Shown here piece by piece: positions 23,315-30,287 of a stretch of 54,458 nucleotides of DNA. Positions within the stretch are counted from its first letter, which is position 1. Each line of letters begins with the position of its first letter. Both the position numbers and the translations under genes were made by a program. The stretch covers positions 1-54,458 of the forward strand of contig VYFT01000049.1 of NCBI GenBank assembly GCA_009842245.1. The letters are read 5' to 3'. The DNA is from Gammaproteobacteria bacterium. Its GTDB lineage: Bacteria > Pseudomonadota > Gammaproteobacteria > Pseudomonadales > Azotimanducaceae. The notes under the pieces are model-generated. The model searched no databases. It was not told the DNA's origin and saw nothing but the letters and a program-made list of their open reading frames with translations.

Positions 23315-24337
23315 ATGAGCGAAATAGTGCAATCGGATTCCAGCCACAGGATTCACAAGGTTGATGCCGAAACAATCGAAGCGATTGGGAAGTGTTCACA
23401 TTGTTTTAGTGAAATTTCAGCGAACGTTGCGAGAGTTGTGCTTGGACAGGACGACGTCGTCGATCATGTTTTGCAATGTTTAATTGCCAACGGTCATGTG
23501 TTACTTGAAGGTGTTCCAGGACTTGGTAAAACTTTACTAGTTCGAGCTCTTGCAACGAGCATTCGAGTAGACACTGCCCGTATTCAATTCACACCGGACC
23601 TCATGCCTAGCGATGTGACTGGGCACGCTCAATACAGCCTCAAGCAGGAAGAGTTCATCATTCGAAAAGGACCTGTGTTCACAAATCTTTTATTAGCGGA
23701 TGAGATCAACCGAGCTCCCGCAAAAACACAATCCGCCCTTCTTGAGATAATGCAAGAACGCCGTGCGACGATTGAAGGCGAGAGTTTTCCAGTAGCGAAA
23801 CCGTACATGGTTCTGGCGACCCAGAATCCCATTGAGTTTGAGGGTACCTACCCACTTCCAGAAGCTCAGCTGGATCGATTTATGATTAACGCCTACATTG
23901 ACTATCCTGCTGTGGATGACGAGGTAGCCATAGTTGACCAGGTAACTACGGGTCGTGCTGTCGATCAACTTGATACTTCTGCGATCGAACCTGTTGCTAC
24001 CGTTGAGGATGTGTCAATGGCTCAAGAAATCGCATCGAAAATCCACATCGATGACGAAGTATTGAAATACGCAGTCGAGATTGTTCGAGCCACTCGCAAC
24101 TTCAACGGTGTAACTCAAGGCGCTAGTCCTCGCGCAGGAATTGCGTTAGCACGTATGGCGCGCGCCGCCGCATTAATGAGCAATAGATATTTTGTAATTC
24201 CCGACGACATCCACTCAACTGCGTTGCCAGCTTTACGACATCGAATATCTCTCAGTCCCGAATTTCAAATTGAAGGACTTTCTCCCGACAAAGTTTTGGA
24301 AGACATTATCTCGGAGATTCCCGCACCAAGGACATGA
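23315..24337 (+). CDS. MoxR-family AAA+ ATPase
   Basis: This is a 340-residue AAA+ ATPase. Walker A is in EGVPGLGKTLLVRAL, Walker B is in LLADEINRAPAKTQSALLEIMQE, sensor 1 is in VLATQNPIEFEGTYPLPEAQLDRF, and the lid domain has GASPRAGIALARMARAAAL. MoxR proteins act as chaperones that remodel or load VWA/DUF58-type partners. It is followed by DUF58 with a 4-bp overlap, the standard pairing. It is cytoplasmic, probably docking on the membrane proteins of the operon. Confidence 0.95.
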   Translation: MSEIVQSDSSHRIHKVDAETIEAIGKCSHCFSEISANVARVVLGQDDVVDHVLQCLIANGHVLLEGVPGLGKTLLVRALATSIRVDTARIQFTPDLMPSDVTGHAQYSLKQEEFIIRKGPVFTNLLLADEINRAPAKTQSALLEIMQERRATIEGESFPVAKPYMVLATQNPIEFEGTYPLPEAQLDRFMINAYIDYPAVDDEVAIVDQVTTGRAVDQLDTSAIEPVATVEDVSMAQEIASKIHIDDEVLKYAVEIVRATRNFNGVTQGASPRAGIALARMARAAALMSNRYFVIPDDIHSTALPALRHRISLSPEFQIEGLSPDKVLEDIISEIPAPRT

Positions 24338-25665
24338 GACCCTCCAATCTCTTTGTGGGTAGCCTAATAGGGTTAACGCTGTTAGCGATACTCTCGCCAA
24401 CATTAAGATTGCTTGAGTTCCCTTCGTTTGTCCATCAGTTTATCGACATTTCGTTGATCGTACTAGCGAACCTTTGGGTCGCGACAATCACAATCGATGT
24501 TGTGCATTTGCGCAATCGCCGTGAACTTGAAGCCCGCCGTGAAATGTCGAGCACCTTAGCGGTTGGTCACGATAGCCGCGTACAGCTGTCCGTCCGACAC
24601 AACTACGAACGCTCAGTCAAAATGGTTATTCAAGATCGTTGTCCACTGGAACTCAATCCCAAAGACTCAGTGATTTCCCAGTTGGTTCCTGCTCGTAGCA
24701 CTGTACAGTACGAGTATTTGGTCCATCCAATCGTCCGAGGCAACTTCGAACTCGATTACGTTGATATTACCTACGACTCAATTCTTGGATTTTGGCAACG
24801 TATCGTCCGTGTTCCAGTTAAAAACGCCGTACGAGTGTATCCCGACTTTGCACAGATTTCTAGGTACTTACAAATCTTGTTAGCACATCAAACTCTCTTA
24901 ATTGGTTTGCGAAAACAACATCGTCGTGGTACTGGTCTCGACTTTCATCAGTTACGCGAGTATCGACAGGGAGATCAACTCAACCACATCGACTGGAAGA
25001 CTACCTCAAAACGTCGAGCACTTATTTCCCGCGAATTTCAAGACGAACGATCACAACAGTTGTTGTTTCTCGTGGATACAGGAAAACGAATGCACAGTGG
25101 CGATGAGGTATCACCACTCTTCGACCAAGCACTTGATGCCATGCTACTACTTTCCTACATCGCGCTGCAACAAGGTGATGGAGTATCGGTCTATTGTTTC
25201 GGACACATGACTCGATGGATACCCGAATTGAAGGGACTTTCCTCGATCACACGAATGCTACATCGAACCTATGACTTGCAGACGGGTACCTATGCTTCTG
25301 ACTATATTGAAGCAGCGGAAAACGCGCTAGCGAGACACCGTAAGCGATCATTAGTAGTATTGCTGACTAGTTTTCGCGATGACGATAAGGATTTACCCGG
25401 AGCACTGAAACTGCTTTCGACTCGCCACCTCGTTATGCTTGCGAACTTGCATGAGAGTCTGATCGATCGCATGTATACGACGGATGTGGATACAACTGCT
25501 CGCGCATTGAGCGTGTTGGGCATCGCCAAATATATTCAAGAACGCGCTCGAGTAATCGCGCAATGTAAAGGCTCTTGTAGAGTCGTGTTAGAAAGTAAAC
25601 CCAAAGATCTACCCATCAACATGGTCAATGCATACTGGAGTCTCAAACGCTCGGGACAGTTTTGA
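24334..25665 (+). CDS. DUF58-domain protein (MoxR partner)
   Basis: This is a 443-residue protein. Two N-terminal hydrophobic segments (residues 8-25 and 30-52) anchor it. The DUF58 core is clear in GLDFHQLREYRQGDQLNHIDWKTT (residues about 205-228). A VWA-like region follows with LLFLVDTGKRMHSGDEVSPLFDQALD. It is the last gene of the six-gene operon and the presumed target of MoxR. Pieces of this gene recur downstream between the small RDD genes (see the pseudogene entries), showing that its 3' half was once duplicated together with an RDD gene. Confidence 0.93.
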   Translation: MRPSNLFVGSLIGLTLLAILSPTLRLLEFPSFVHQFIDISLIVLANLWVATITIDVVHLRNRRELEARREMSSTLAVGHDSRVQLSVRHNYERSVKMVIQDRCPLELNPKDSVISQLVPARSTVQYEYLVHPIVRGNFELDYVDITYDSILGFWQRIVRVPVKNAVRVYPDFAQISRYLQILLAHQTLLIGLRKQHRRGTGLDFHQLREYRQGDQLNHIDWKTTSKRRALISREFQDERSQQLLFLVDTGKRMHSGDEVSPLFDQALDAMLLLSYIALQQGDGVSVYCFGHMTRWIPELKGLSSITRMLHRTYDLQTGTYASDYIEAAENALARHRKRSLVVLLTSFRDDDKDLPGALKLLSTRHLVMLANLHESLIDRMYTTDVDTTARALSVLGIAKYIQERARVIAQCKGSCRVVLESKPKDLPINMVNAYWSLKRSGQF

Positions 25666-25687
25666 CTGGGCACGATCAAAAATCTAT

Positions 25688-25771
25688 ATGCCAATGACTG
25701 AAAGGACCAATCCCTACGACGTTAACTTAGGCACTTATGCAAGGTGTCTCTCAGTCAACCGTAGTCGCTGA
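25688..25771 (+). pseudogene. Possible remnant of an RDD-gene 5' end
   Basis: A 27-codon reading frame starts 22 bp after the DUF58 stop and encodes MPMTERTNPYDVNLG near its start, then runs into unrelated residues and stops. The MTE...NPYDV opening matches the N-termini of the small RDD proteins, most closely the fourth (MTELNPYVV). It could be a leftover start of another RDD copy or a tiny leader ORF. Too short to be sure. Confidence 0.4.
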
Positions 25772-25774
25772 ACA

Positions 25775-26371
25775 GTGTCGAAAGCTTATAACCCGTATCA
25801 AGCTCCGAAAGCAGGACTCACTGAGGTAAAACCTGATGTTCCTGTCGAACTTGCTTCGATTGTTCAACGGGTCCTAGCTCGAGTGATTGACAATCTTATT
25901 TTGTCATTTGTTGCATTTGTCATAATACTCTTTGTTGCGATGATCGCCCTGATATTGATGCTTGTCTTTGGTGGAATCGACGAAGACAGTTTTGCAGAGT
26001 TGGAAACGTGGTCAGGCTTAATTGAACAGTATCAAAATCCCTTTGACTTTAAATTTTTCAATCTGTTCATTTTGGGTTCAATCATCGTCAACCAAGGACT
26101 CTTCCTAGCAATACAAGGTGTCTTCTTGCACAGATATGGTCAAACAATTGGGAAGAGATTACTCAAAATCGCTATGGTCGATGCGGAAACTCATGAGAAA
26201 GTCCCATTACCACAGTTGTTTGTACTTCGTTATTTGATTTGGGATATTCCAGCGTTTGTTTACAGTCCAGTCAATTGGATCATTCGCGTTGTTGACCTCT
26301 GTTTTGCATTACGAAAGAACCGACGGACGCTTCACGACATGACGGCTAATACTATAGTGATCAAAGTTTAG
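25775..26371 (+). CDS. Small RDD-family membrane protein, copy 1
   Basis: This is a 198-residue protein. It opens with YNPYQAPKAGL, a short soluble motif shared by its paralogues. The RDD domain follows: QRVLARVIDNLILSFVAF (Arg and Asp in helix 1), a second span near residues 110-130, then HRYGQTIGKRLLKIAMVD, and a third span ending in RKNRRTLHDMTANTIVIKV. RDD proteins are of mostly unknown function; one Bacillus-type homologue was linked to Na+/H+ exchange. The start is GTG. It follows the DUF58 gene by 109 bp on the same strand. Confidence 0.9.
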   Translation: MSKAYNPYQAPKAGLTEVKPDVPVELASIVQRVLARVIDNLILSFVAFVIILFVAMIALILMLVFGGIDEDSFAELETWSGLIEQYQNPFDFKFFNLFILGSIIVNQGLFLAIQGVFLHRYGQTIGKRLLKIAMVDAETHEKVPLPQLFVLRYLIWDIPAFVYSPVNWIIRVVDLCFALRKNRRTLHDMTANTIVIKV

Positions 26372-26434
26372 CATTTCACAGATTAGAACCTACTTTCTTT
26401 GAACAGAGCTACTCGGAGTGTTTCAAATCGTTGC

Positions 26435-26616
26435 GATGACGTGTCTCCATTCTTCGACTATGTGCTCGATCTGGTATTTCCAATATCATGGTTTATACTG
26501 CAATCGGTAGATCGTGTATTGGGTTATTGGCTTGGATAACACCGTGGATCCCAGAGATTAACGAGTTCTCTGCGGATCTTCCATTCAACTTGGACTATCT
26601 TGAGTATGCCTCAAAA
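26435..26616 (+). pseudogene. Decayed DUF58 fragment between RDD copies 1 and 2
   Basis: Read from 26435, the plus strand encodes DDVSPFFDYVLDLV, matching DEVSPLFDQALDAM of the intact DUF58 gene at 25102 onward. After a stop and a frame change it gives WIPEINEFSADL against WIPELKGLSSIT, and the match continues to about 25300 of the parent. The whole 26372-26728 spacer has no other gene. It is a relic with stops and small deletions. Confidence 0.78.
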
Positions 26617-26728
26617 GTTCCTGGGTGTGTAGTCCGCCAAATCAGGTGATCACATTAACCCAATAGTAGCGTAGTAAACGCGATTTAACGAGCACTGAGC
26701 GAATCTCTCCACATCACGAAGTTGAACA

Positions 26729-27322
26729 ATGTCATCAACATTTAACCCCTACGAAGCCCCGAAGACGGACTTCACTGACGACCAATTCGTACCGGAAGAA
26801 GTTGAACTTGCTACTGTTGTTGATCGAATCTTAGCTCGAGTGATCGATTACGTTTTGTTTATGTTGGCTGTTGTTGTGTTAATAGCAATTGGCTTGTTGG
26901 TCGAACTGATCGCTTCTGGTGCGGAAAGCGCCATGGAAGCTCTAAATGAAATCATGGCTTCAGATACTGACCCGTTTTTCAAAGTCAATTTGTTAGATCC
27001 AATTGTTTGGACGGCCATCATCATCACACACGTGATATTCTTAGCACTACACGGATTTCTGTTACATCGTTACGGGCAAACAATTGGGAAAAGACTACTA
27101 AAAATCGCAATGGTCGATGCAGACACACACAAGAAAGTACCGTTACCAAGACTGTTTGTGCTTCGATACTTGGTATGGGATATTCCAACGCTGACCGTCA
27201 GACCGTTCTTTTGGATCATTCGCATCGTTGACCTCTTGTTTGGTTTGCGAAAAAACCGTCGGACGCTTCACGACTTGACGGCGAATACCAAAGTGATCAA
27301 AGTTTACAAACGATTAGATTGA
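26729..27322 (+). CDS. Small RDD-family membrane protein, copy 2
   Basis: This is a 197-residue paralogue of copy 1. It begins FNPYEAPKTDFTDD. The conserved blocks are VDRILARVIDYVLFML, HRYGQTIGKRLLKIAMVDADTHKKVPLPRLFVLRYLVWDIP and LRKNRRTLHDLTANTKVIKV. The region between helices 1 and 2 differs from the other copies, so the periplasmic or interhelix loop is the variable part. Its upstream spacer is a DUF58 relic, and a promoter of its own is not obvious; it may be read through from the MoxR operon. Confidence 0.9.
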   Translation: MSSTFNPYEAPKTDFTDDQFVPEEVELATVVDRILARVIDYVLFMLAVVVLIAIGLLVELIASGAESAMEALNEIMASDTDPFFKVNLLDPIVWTAIIITHVIFLALHGFLLHRYGQTIGKRLLKIAMVDADTHKKVPLPRLFVLRYLVWDIPTLTVRPFFWIIRIVDLLFGLRKNRRTLHDLTANTKVIKVYKRLD

Positions 27323-27369
27323 ACCGACTTTCTTCGAACTGAACAACAAGGAACAAATCAAGTCGTTGT

Positions 27370-27507
27370 GATGAGGTGCCGCATTTCTTTGATCATGCGC
27401 TCGATTGGTCGCGCAGCGAAATGGAGCATGTAGAATTTTGCTAGAGAGCAAACCTAAGGATCCGCCACCGAATATGGTCAACGCCACCTAAAGCCTCACA
27501 CACTCGG
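27370..27507 (+). pseudogene. Internally deleted DUF58 fragment between RDD copies 2 and 3
   Basis: The first 39 bases encode DEVPHFFDHALDW, matching the parent DUF58 at 25102-25140. The sequence then jumps to the parent 3' end: 27409-27507 aligns without gaps to 25556-25654, with 68 of 99 positions identical by hand count. The translated match is LESKPKDPPPNMVNAT-stop against LESKPKDLPINMVNAYW, where the stop TAA replaces the parental Trp codon. This shows a duplicated, decayed copy with about 415 bases lost inside. Confidence 0.85.
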
Positions 27508-27625
27508 TCGACTCTAGTTTCAAGCAAGGTACAACTCAAAATAGAATCACGACGGTACGCAAGACTCGCGTTGAGCGTGAAGGTGATCACACTTCGATAC
27601 ACTAACTCTTCAAAAACCCACAAGA

Positions 27626-28198
27626 ATGTCAACAACGTTTAACCCCTACAAAGCACCAAAGAGTGATTACACCGAAGCGCATTCAGAATTACATCAATAC
27701 GAGCTTGCTACGATTTGGCAACGAATTTTAGCTCGAGTAATTGATGAGTTATTATTACTATTCACATTTGTCGTTTTCTTGGTCTTTATCGGGATTGGCG
27801 CGTTCATCGTTGGAGCTTTTCCACTGTTCGATATTTGGCTTGACGACGAATTCACTCTTTTTACTTTCAATCTTTTCGATCTAGATATTTGGATTGATAT
27901 CATTGTTCTTAACGGTCTATTTCTAATGCTAAACGGGGTGCTGTTGCACCGATATGGTCAAACCATCGGAAAGATGCTCCTAAAAATTAAGATGGTAGAC
28001 GCGGACACTCACGCGTTAGTCCCATTACGTCGTATCTTCGTATTACGCTACTTAATCTGGTCCATTCCTTCGCTATTCATGACTGGGGTCAGCATAGCCA
28101 TCGGCGTTGTCGACCTCTTGTTTGGATTGCGAAAAAACCGTCGGACACTTCACGACTTGACTGCTAATACCATAGTGATCAAAGATTCAAATTATTAG
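27626..28198 (+). CDS. Small RDD-family membrane protein, copy 3
   Basis: This is a 190-residue paralogue. It opens with FNPYKAPKSDYTEA. The blocks WQRILARVIDELLLLF, HRYGQTIGKMLLKIKMVDADTHALVPL and LRKNRRTLHDLTANTIVIKD are clearly related to copies 1 and 2. The linker after helix 1 is rich in Asp and Phe and unlike the others. It ends 73 bp before the convergent ATPase gene. It is the last copy with the shared 3' flank. Confidence 0.9.
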   Translation: MSTTFNPYKAPKSDYTEAHSELHQYELATIWQRILARVIDELLLLFTFVVFLVFIGIGAFIVGAFPLFDIWLDDEFTLFTFNLFDLDIWIDIIVLNGLFLMLNGVLLHRYGQTIGKMLLKIKMVDADTHALVPLRRIFVLRYLIWSIPSLFMTGVSIAIGVVDLLFGLRKNRRTLHDLTANTIVIKDSNY

Positions 28199-28271
28199 AT
28201 TGAACCTACTGTTTTCGAACGTATAAACGAGTAATCGTTCAATTTGTAGCGCTTAGAATCCACACACACGG

Positions 28272-29426
28272 TCAAATTAGACTCCCCTCATTAAGGAGGG
28301 AAATGAACTCTGCATAGGGCATAATTTCAATAGAACCGATTCGTCTTCGGTCGTTTTCGGCACTAACGATTACAGCTGTTTCAGGTTTGAATTCCTCCAC
28401 AAAAGCGTTCATACCCCGCAAGTCTCGTGATCTAACTTGGCTCTTCACTTCAACCGCAATTTGACCATCGCCAAGGACAAAATCTACTTCCAGCCCAGAA
28501 CTGGTTCGCCAAAACGATATGTCAAAATCTTTCTCTAAGTAGCTTCTTGCAGCCCAAATCTCGGTGAGTATCAGGTGTTCAAACGACTTACCGAACTCGG
28601 TAGTGCTACGAGGACCTAGCGGTCGATCACAAATGAAATTCGCTAATCCAACATCAAACAAGTAGAACTTTGGCTTGCTTGATATCGTTTTACGCTTAGA
28701 AGGTCGGTTAAAAGGATGCACGAGATATCCGATAAGTGTGTCTTCAAGGATTTCAACATAGGTACGCACAGTATGATTACTAACACCGCAGTCGCGGGAA
28801 ATGCTACTGTAATTGAGTATTTCTCCGTGAAAAAATCTCATTGCCTTGAAAAAGCGAGAGAAAGACTGTGCATTGCGTACATAGGCTTCGTTGTAAATTT
28901 CTGTTTCTAAATAGGTATTTACATAAGCGTCTAGGCTACGACGATAGTGTTTTCGTCCATAAACAGTCGGGAGCATTCCGCAGTTCAATCCAGTAAGCAA
29001 GTCAAACCCGCCGATTTCAGCGATCGTTAAAGGATACATGTGGAATCGCCAAGCTCTACCTCCGAGTAGATTTACTCCTGGACGTTTCAACTTTCGAGCA
29101 CTCGAACCACATAGAACAAATGAGTAGCGTTTTGTTTCGATTAACCGGTGTACTTCATCCAGTAGGTTTGTGGCGTTTTGCACCTCGTCAATGACGATCG
29201 GTAATGCAACTTTCGTAGAGGGTTGTGATTCGAGCATCTCGCCCAACGCCGATGGTCTGACGCTAAGACGATCTCGTTGATCGAAGTCAAGAAGATCAAT
29301 ATAGATAGACTCTTGAAATTTAGTCCGTAAATAGGTGGTTTTTCCACATTGTCGAGGACCCCATAAAAACGCGGACTGGTTCAAGGGTAGTCCCAAATCC
29401 AGTTTTCGAGAATAAATATCTTGCAA
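28272..29426 (-). CDS. AAA ATPase with C-terminal DUF4143 domain
   Basis: This is a 384-residue ATPase. Walker A is GPRQCGKTT (residues 24-32), Walker B is in LPIVIDEVQN, and sensor-like FVLCGSSARKLKR follows. The C-terminal DUF4143 domain (SGLEVDFVLGDGQIAVEVKSQ) resembles a PD-(D/E)XK nuclease fold with D, E and K residues. Such genes are scattered, mobile and of unknown role. It interrupts the RDD array on the opposite strand, suggesting acquisition. The start is TTG with GGAAG 4 bases before it. A palindromic operator lies just upstream. The frame is intact and full length. Confidence 0.88.
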   Translation of the reverse strand: MQDIYSRKLDLGLPLNQSAFLWGPRQCGKTTYLRTKFQESIYIDLLDFDQRDRLSVRPSALGEMLESQPSTKVALPIVIDEVQNATNLLDEVHRLIETKRYSFVLCGSSARKLKRPGVNLLGGRAWRFHMYPLTIAEIGGFDLLTGLNCGMLPTVYGRKHYRRSLDAYVNTYLETEIYNEAYVRNAQSFSRFFKAMRFFHGEILNYSSISRDCGVSNHTVRTYVEILEDTLIGYLVHPFNRPSKRKTISSKPKFYLFDVGLANFICDRPLGPRSTTEFGKSFEHLILTEIWAARSYLEKDFDISFWRTSSGLEVDFVLGDGQIAVEVKSQVRSRDLRGMNAFVEEFKPETAVIVSAENDRRRIGSIEIMPYAEFISLLNEGSLI

Positions 29427-29708: not shown

Positions 29709-30287
29709 ATGACTGAACTCAACCCATATGTCGTACCCAAGGCCGAACTAGATCACGACTTCGACACCGACGATATTGAACTTGCCGGACTTGGAGAACG
29801 GTTCTTTGCTCGACTAATAGATTGGGCGTTGCGAAACATCATATTCTTCATTCTCTTTCTGATTTGTTTGCCGATGCTTGGAGGGTGGTTAAGTACGGCT
29901 TGGGGACCCGATCCGGCGGCAACTTTCATGAACGATCCTTACGAGGTCATGTTGATGTTTTTCGTCAACTTTAATAACCCGATCATACTGTATTGCATCT
30001 TATTGACGCATTTAAGTTTTCTCATCCTACAAGGAATACCCTTAGCCTTGTGGGGTCAAACACTAGGTAAAAAATGGATGAACATTGCGATGGTGGACGA
30101 GACGACGCACGAAAGAGTCTCCTTTTTCAAACTACTTTTTTTACGCTACATGGCTTGCGACATACCAGCGCTGATATTCAGCCCTCTAAATTGGCTTGTA
30201 CGTCTGACTGATCTATTATTCGGTTTTCAAAATGACCGTAGAACCTTACATGACAAACTTGCAAGAACGATAGTGATTAAGGTGTAG
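29709..30287 (+). CDS. Small RDD-family membrane protein, copy 4
   Basis: This is a 192-residue member, more diverged than copies 1-3. It begins LNPYVVPKAELDHD. It has ELAGLGERFFARLIDWALR in helix 1, a Trp-rich loop, WGQTLGKKWMNIAMVDETTHERVSFFK, and FQNDRRTLHDKLARTIVIKV at the end. The ATG follows a spacer in which I found no DUF58 remains, so this copy may predate the tandem duplication. Next on the same strand is asnS, 129 bp away. Confidence 0.9.
   Translation: MTELNPYVVPKAELDHDFDTDDIELAGLGERFFARLIDWALRNIIFFILFLICLPMLGGWLSTAWGPDPAATFMNDPYEVMLMFFVNFNNPIILYCILLTHLSFLILQGIPLALWGQTLGKKWMNIAMVDETTHERVSFFKLLFLRYMACDIPALIFSPLNWLVRLTDLLFGFQNDRRTLHDKLARTIVIKV

What the first reader, a model, noticed from the sequence alone, without database searches (positions are those of the whole stretch)
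25102..28222. Tandem duplication of a DUF58-RDD unit in which only RDD copies survived
The spacers between small RDD genes carry decayed pieces of the upstream DUF58 gene: a frameshifted middle (26435-26616) and an internally deleted copy whose 3' end aligns gap-free to the parent over 99 bases. The RDD copies stayed intact while the DUF58 copies decayed, so extra RDD dosage or diversity was selected.
Basis: seen in the sequence. Interest (0 to 1): 0.75.

Follow-up and report, generated by a model that had tools for sequence, protein, structure and literature searches.

The report
Recombining tandem array of RDD genes
A small membrane-protein gene was copied in tandem together with a broken-off end of its neighbour, and in related bacteria the copies are gained, lost and spliced into each other, which is a clear but fairly ordinary example of how bacterial gene arrays evolve.

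Summary
Both spacers between the small RDD genes carry DUF58 remnants: window 26430-26555 (DUF58 nt 764-893) and 27365-27507 (nt 769-800, then nt 1217-1319 without a gap). None of 200 shuffles reaches the score of any of these three pieces.

Tandem duplication is supported. Both spacers join the RDD 3' flank to DUF58 at the same internal point (codon ~255), so the DUF58 part was already cut off at its 5' end before the second duplication. The sp1 remnant fits neutral decay; the sp2 3' piece is better preserved than that, unresolved.

Five same-genus draft genomes show a mechanism. RDD copy number between DUF58 and an inverted AAA_14-DUF4143 gene is 1, 1, 1, 2 and at least 3, and 3 in the window. 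One relative carries a clean chimera of two neighbouring RDD genes, joined in the conserved 3' RRTLHD motif. In the window, R2 and R3 turn from divergent to near-identical about 30 nt before that motif. Intact, divergent copies favour diversity over dosage, but no positive selection was detected. A new member of a known kind.

The parts
24334..25665 (+). DUF58 (VWA-like) gene, intact parent of the remnants
   Evidence: Pfam DUF58 2.1e-23, VWA_2 2.9e-06; 83-85% aa identity in five relatives
25666..25774 (+). leader of RDD1; matches no relative's DUF58-RDD leader
   Evidence: z 3.0 or less against all five
25775..26371 (+). RDD1 (198 aa)
   Evidence: Pfam RDD 2.3e-18
26372..26429 (+). 3' flank of RDD1, homologous to the flanks of RDD2 and RDD3
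26430..26555 (+). DUF58 remnant, nt 764-893, 4-nt gap after codon ~290
   Evidence: 0 of 200 shuffles reach the score
26641..26728 (+). leader of RDD2, homologous to the DUF58-RDD leader of relatives (not to RDD1's own leader)
   Evidence: 0 of 200 shuffles; z 10.4-13.6 with G105/G101, 6.7-7.7 with G102, 4.2-5.6 with G104, about 0 with G103
26729..27322 (+). RDD2 (197 aa)
   Evidence: Pfam RDD 7.1e-18
27230..27345 (+). 3' end plus flank of RDD2 (approximate limits): 0.97, 0.90, 0.86, 0.72 identical to that of RDD3 in successive 30-nt windows; the two windows upstream 0.57 and 0.40
   Evidence: MaxChi
27365..27402 (+). DUF58 remnant, nt 769-800, same left junction as spacer 1
   Evidence: 0 of 200 shuffles; shared junction
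27403..27507 (+). DUF58 remnant, nt 1217-1319, gap-free, one in-frame stop
   Evidence: 0 of 200 shuffles; translation
27626..28198 (+). RDD3 (190 aa); body groups with G105 copy b, 3' end with RDD2
   Evidence: Pfam 3.8e-17; tree 95/86; MaxChi 0 of 3000
28199..28225 (+). 3' flank of RDD3, like those of RDD1/2 up to or shortly before their junction, then unlike them
28272..29426 (-). AAA_14-DUF4143 ATPase gene, inverted, bounds the array
   Evidence: Pfam 2.2e-32 and 5.2e-22; 78-83% identity at the same place in five relatives
29709..30287 (+). RDD4, older paralogue outside the variable array
   Evidence: Pfam 6.5e-17; separate clade 100/99

Best explanation
The region is a recombining tandem array of RDD membrane-protein genes behind a MoxR-DUF58 gene cluster. 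An ancestral DUF58-RDD stretch was duplicated by joining the sequence just after RDD to a point inside DUF58 (codon ~255). The unit is therefore [3' part of DUF58 - leader - RDD - short flank]. A second duplication carried the same junction along and gave three RDD genes. The DUF58 pieces lack the first 254 codons; they were passengers and decayed, while each RDD copy stayed under purifying selection. The array changes by recombination between RDD copies, in the two cases seen in or just before the conserved 3' RRTLHD motif, which deletes units, makes chimeras and shares 3' ends while the bodies stay divergent. Shown: the remnants, the shared junction, copy-number differences among relatives, the chimera, and the identity step in RDD2/RDD3. 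Inferred: the order of events, RecA-type homologous or homeologous recombination as the agent, and that divergent RDD proteins are useful.
For: Remnants beyond chance. Shared junction: 83 columns common to both spacers, crossing it at 72% identity. RDD3's flank resembles the others only up to or shortly before the junction. RDD copies between DUF58 and the AAA_14 gene in 6 genomes: 1 (G102, G103, G104), 2 (G101), at least 3 (G105, array split over two contigs), 3 (window). G101's first RDD: 123 of 126 informative sites match G105 copy a left of the breakpoint, 5 of 180 right of it (the rest match copy b); MaxChi 273, 0 of 10000 permutations; crossover inside a 5-bp identical run in the RRTLHD motif. 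RDD3 matches G105 copy b at 103 of 141 informative sites and then at 3 of 24 (the rest match RDD2), 0 of 3000 permutations; the same breakpoint appears with RDD1 in place of RDD2 (1 of 3000) and in three tests of RDD2 (3, 6 and 8 of 3000). R2-R3 identity per 30 nt: 0.57, 0.40, then 0.97, 0.90, 0.86. Independent second case: G105 spacer 1 carries its own DUF58 last ~23 nt plus leader, 76% identical over the 62 columns nt 1310-1371 (score 32 against a shuffle maximum of 17). Purifying selection on the C-terminal part of all three copies.
Against: Alikeness of 3' ends within a genome is seen in the window (ends 0.82-0.86, bodies 0.61-0.72) but not in G105 (0.70-0.74 against 0.68-0.77), slightly in G097 (0.73 against 0.66) and not in G081 (0.49 against 0.53); flanks counted from each copy's own stop are 0.45-0.74 in the window; G007 and G106 gave no anchor. 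The sp2 3' piece is too well preserved for simple neutral decay, which a pure passenger model does not predict (it was picked as the best-preserved piece, so it is biased that way). RDD2's leader, not RDD1's, resembles the leaders of four of the five relatives, so the order of events is not settled. The relatives are draft assemblies, and the chimera is a single instance.
Confidence: 0.8

Rival explanations
1. One reading: complete DUF58-RDD units were duplicated, and functional extra DUF58 copies later died while RDD copies were kept. (Overlaps with the best explanation; it differs in the first step only.)
For: The 33-codon sp2 remnant rejects a neutral clock (LR 10.0, 0 of 60 simulations), as if it had been coding for part of its life; a two-phase model (coding, then dead) fits better than a neutral clock on codons 405-440 (lnL -376.9 against -381.8). 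The short 5' piece of sp2 leans the same way without significance (LR 1.64).
Against: Both spacers start DUF58 at the same internal point; no piece gave a match to nt 1-763 above chance. The sp1 remnant fits neutral decay (LR 0.00); codons 398-440 of sp2 as a whole give only LR 3.2. The sp2 piece was chosen for being well preserved.
Confidence: 0.2
2. The extra units came by recombination with DNA of a related species rather than by duplication within the lineage, so copies were divergent from the start.
For: Sp2's 3' remnant and RDD2's leader are closer to relatives than to the window's own DUF58 region (45 against 37; 22 against 6-11). RDD3's body groups with G105 copy b (95/86).
Against: None of RDD1-3 is more than 64% identical to any array copy of the five close relatives, so a recent import from close kin of theirs is unlikely. 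Sp1's remnant attaches nearer the window's own DUF58 (1.45) than the relatives' (3.69).
Confidence: 0.2
3. The array is kept for dosage (more of the same RDD protein).
For: Copy number varies and the array copies are open genes.
Against: Copies are 50-56% identical at protein level, and the TM1-to-TM2 segment is only 0.41-0.49 identical at DNA level.
Confidence: 0.1

Closest known systems
RDD family (PF06271), e.g. Halobacillus andaensis RDD (Na+/H+ antiporter, PMC5996927, abstract read) and Bacillus subtilis SppI (SppA inhibitor, PMC7568657, passages read)
   Same: Pfam RDD domain in all four array genes well above the cut-off; conserved R/D motifs ARxID, VDL, RRTLHD.
   Different: No function shown here; an N-terminal NPYxAP-like segment and three tandem divergent copies behind DUF58; no NCBIfam model matches RDD3 at E up to 0.01.
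MoxR-DUF58 gene clusters with DUF4129, SpoIIM and RDD genes (recalled kind; domains, where DUF4129 and DUF4350 are below their cut-offs)
   Same: DUF4129 - DUF4350-like - MoxR - DUF58 order also in the fetched stretches of the five close relatives and of G097, G081 and G109; the RDD - SpoIIM left end was within the stretch only in G105 (SpoIIM also in G100).
   Different: Additional RDD genes after DUF58, of variable number.
Tandem paralogue arrays that change by unequal crossing-over, with chimeric genes (general kind; copy-number change reviewed in PMC3857721, of which I saw the title and start of the abstract in a listing)
   Same: Copy-number differences, a chimera with its junction in a conserved motif, shared 3' ends in the window.
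   Different: The unit drags along a 5'-truncated piece of a neighbouring gene, which marks the duplication junction.

Membership tests
RDD family (PF06271) | Full-length match above the curated cut-off (24.1 bits) | tested here: met
   62.6-67.2 bits over nearly the whole model for the four genes
RDD family (PF06271) | Conserved arginine and two aspartates | tested here: met
   R33/R37, D40 and D163 invariant in 10 of 10 aligned sequences; which of them are the name-giving residues is recalled
RDD family (PF06271) | Na+/H+ antiport (H. andaensis RDD) or SppA inhibition (SppI) | not testable with these tools
   No assay; no solved structure matched by sequence profile (0 at E up to 1)
Tandem array changing by recombination between copies | Copy number differs between close relatives | tested here: met
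   1, 1, 1, 2, at least 3, 3 in 6 genomes
Tandem array changing by recombination between copies | Chimeric copy joining two neighbours | tested here: met
   G101 against G105, 0 of 10000 permutations
Tandem array changing by recombination between copies | Concerted evolution within a genome | tested here: inconclusive
   Seen at the 3' end in the window, not in G105, slight in G097, not in G081; G007 and G106 not anchored
Diversity-generating (antigenic-variation-like) locus | Positive selection in the variable, outward-facing part | tested here: inconclusive
   omega of the middle part 0.17-1.67 in 9 pairs, none significantly above 1, two of the window's three pairs below 1 (LR 5.8 and 3.9)

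The most novel reading that the evidence does not exclude
The RDD array is a diversification locus: a conserved cytoplasmic frame with a hypervariable membrane and outer-loop module, in which crossovers at the conserved 3' motif keep exchanging bodies among units, so that each lineage of these bacteria carries its own set of RDD variants, for example against phages or for changing partner proteins.
Probability: 0.12. Interest if true: 0.55.

Novelty: new member of a known kind. Interest (0 to 1): 0.3.

Why it matters
RDD proteins are widespread and little understood; a locus where several divergent copies are kept, lost and recombined shows which part is interchangeable and which is not. The truncated DUF58 pieces mark the duplication joint, and the G101/G105 pair catches what is most simply a contraction that formed a chimera, so the mechanism can be read directly from sequence. 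As an evolutionary process it is ordinary.

Tried and rejected
Overlapping regulatory constraint in the DUF58 3' end, as a reason why sp2's remnant is preserved: synonymous-codon identity of codons 398-443 is 0.43 against 0.46 elsewhere (window against relatives) and 0.70 against 0.64 among the relatives, a small difference; promoter-like hits in 25200-28300 are at chance (6 against 5.5 +/- 2.6). Not supported.

DUF58 remnants after RDD3, before RDD4 or after RDD4: scores within the range of shuffles (z 1.7 or less). DUF58 remnants in the spacers of G101, G102, G103, G104 and in the other G105 spacers: no score above its own shuffle maximum.

Recent import from a sampled close relative: none of RDD1-3 is more than 64% identical to their array copies.

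Pairwise omega with single-start optimisation ran into its bounds for many pairs; those values are not used, and (many starts, capped) replaces them. The script stopped with an error after the synonymous-site table; the missing part was run. Of the 12 crossover tests (not corrected for their number), six support a break in or just before the RRTLHD motif (reported above). No signal: G000_R1 with G104_Ra/G000_R2 (1056 of 3000), G102_Ra (1874 of 3000), G105_Rb with G000_R3/G105_Ra (135 of 3000). Breaks elsewhere: G000_R2 with G105_Ra/G000_R1 near the 5' end (7 of 3000), G104_Ra in the middle (24 of 3000), G103_Ra in the 3' tail (25 of 3000).

Literature: RDD family; 26 papers, 20 listed, two opened; DUF58, MoxR, RDD together: 2 papers, not opened; tandem paralogue arrays: 19 papers, 15 listed, none opened; tandem duplication with remnants: 2 papers, none opened; assembly names: 8 papers, by title none on these organisms. 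I make no claim that such arrays are unpublished. PDB profile search: none. The AlphaFold model of RDD3 is of medium confidence (pLDDT 70, 10 sequences) and was used only for helix positions.
Full report
WHAT IS THERE. The window is a whole 54,458-base contig (G000:C26) of a 2.58-Mb draft genome. Around the finding the order is RDD (18821) - SpoIIM - DUF4129 - DUF4350-like - MoxR - DUF58 (24334-25665) - RDD1 - RDD2 - RDD3 - AAA_14/DUF4143 ATPase gene on the other strand (28272-29426) - RDD4 - asparaginyl-tRNA synthetase (DUF4129 and DUF4350 are below their Pfam cut-offs; MoxR and the synthetase are named by recall from their sequences, not from a family search). RDD1-3 are full-length RDD proteins (63-67 bits against a cut-off of 24.1).

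THE REMNANTS ARE REAL. Whole spacers score 25 and 44 against DUF58 plus leader; 200 dinucleotide shuffles average 11.4 and 11.3 with maxima 18 and 16, and the reverse complements give 9 and 11. Cut into eight pieces and tested against DUF58 plus leader of six genomes, four pieces are reached by 0 of 200 shuffles: 26430-26555 (DUF58 nt 764-893), 26641-26728 (the leader that in relatives lies between DUF58 and RDD), 27365-27402 (nt 769-800) and 27403-27507 (nt 1217-1319). The other four, including 26556-26640, are at chance.

ONE JUNCTION, USED TWICE. The two spacers share 83 columns at 72% identity, which run from the RDD 3' flank (29 of 42 identical) straight into DUF58 from nt 764 (31 of 41). 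RDD3's flank resembles the other two (0.69-0.72 in the 30-nt window before) up to or shortly before that place and then drops to 0.53, as expected if it is the original downstream sequence. The unit is thus [DUF58 from codon ~255 - leader - RDD - flank], and the 5' truncation predates the second duplication. Whether a full DUF58 copy existed before that cannot be told: a later deletion would leave the same joint.

AGE AND CONSTRAINT OF THE REMNANTS. A codon model on the tree of six DUF58 genes puts the sp1 remnant (35 codons) nearer the window's own gene (1.45) than the relatives' (3.69), with a length that fits neutral evolution since the duplication (1.50, LR 0.00). The sp2 3' piece (33 codons) does not fit: its branch is 0.64 against 5.28 for the parent, LR 10.0, 0 of 60 simulated neutral-clock data sets as large. 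A larger 43-codon cut gives LR 3.2 and the short 5' piece of sp2 LR 1.64. The 33-codon piece was chosen because it is well preserved, which biases the test. RDD2's leader matches the leaders of four of five relatives (z 4-14; none with G103), while RDD1's own leader matches none above z 3.0. I take the duplication to be old, in or near the base of the window's lineage, and leave the sp2 excess unexplained.

RELATIVES. Of 18 same-genus genomes (the window's included), 15 have an RDD1-like match. I fetched the locus from all 14 others. Five (G101-G105) are close (DUF58 protein 83-85% identical to the window's; G101 and G105 98.8% to each other in DUF58 DNA). RDD genes between DUF58 and the AAA_14 gene: one in G102, G103 and G104; two in G101; at least three in G105, whose array is cut by a contig end; three in the window. 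Among the nine more distant genomes, five (G097, G081, G007, G106, G110) have two adjacent RDD genes after DUF58, three (G063, G109, G100) one, and G111 is cut by contig ends.

RECOMBINATION BETWEEN COPIES. G101's first RDD is G105's copy a up to the RRTLHD motif and G105's copy b, with b's downstream spacer, after it: 123 of 126 informative sites, then 5 of 180, 0 of 10000 permutations, crossover within a run of 5 identical bases. So G101 most likely lost one unit by recombination between neighbours (direction inferred). In the window, RDD3 follows G105 copy b (103 of 141 informative sites) up to about 30 nt before the same motif and RDD2 after it (3 of 24 still match b), 0 of 3000 permutations; four further tests place a break there too (1, 3, 6 and 8 of 3000). 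R2-R3 identity goes 0.57, 0.40, 0.97, 0.90, 0.86, 0.72, 0.53 per 30 nt, the stop codons lying near the end of the 0.86 window. Against generality: within-genome 3' ends are not more alike than bodies in G105 or G081, and only slightly in G097; G007 and G106 could not be anchored; of 12 crossover tests three gave nothing and three put a break elsewhere. G105 also has its own duplication carrying the last ~23 nt of its DUF58 plus leader (nt 1310-1417), closer to its own DUF58 region (32) than to other lineages' (13-22; near-identical G101 also 32), so such duplications happened at least twice.

WHAT THE COPIES DO. The three copies are 50-56% identical. The C-terminal part is under strong purifying selection (omega 0.12-0.15, LR 26-34); the middle is less restrained (omega 1.45, 0.29 and 0.33; the last two still below 1, LR 5.8 and 3.9; none significantly above 1), with synonymous sites near saturation. 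In a medium-confidence model of RDD3 (pLDDT 70) the variable middle is the far half of the first helix and the loop to the second. That this side faces outward is inferred from the positive-inside rule. One RDD protein is a Na+/H+ antiporter (PMC5996927, abstract read) and another inhibits the protease SppA (PMC7568657, passages read); neither function can be assigned here. Divergent, constrained copies argue against simple dosage; diversity is the better guess but unproven.

VERDICT. It is better described as a recombining RDD array whose units drag along a truncated DUF58 end: a clear instance of a known kind of process.

Noticed in passing
L053:8703-9722 and L054:1-87 (G105): Inside the second RDD spacer of G105 lies an insertion with a 24-bp terminal inverted repeat and an 8-bp target duplication (AAATTTTT), carrying a protein with N6_N4_Mtase and HNH domains; the empty site is in G101. 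The contig break of G105 falls inside it.
   Followed up: partly
L056 (G101), RDD4 near 2404-2443: RDD4 of G101 is split over two frames, unlike in the window and the other four close relatives; sequencing error or real decay is not known.
   Followed up: no
window 28272-29426 and relatives: The AAA_14-DUF4143 ATPase gene has several relatives in most genomes of this genus (up to 14 matches in one genome), and the table reports one TGA and one TAG for the G103 copy in this locus.
   Followed up: no
L053 6583-7278, L055, L057, L058 (first RDD of G105, G104, G102, G103): The first RDD of four relatives has a C-terminal tail (roughly APTLxRLxRxAQ) that the window's copies lack; in G101 the tail is replaced through the crossover.
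   Followed up: partly
window 26556-26640 and 27508-27625: Parts of the two spacers that match neither DUF58 nor any spacer of the close relatives above chance-like scores.
   Followed up: partly
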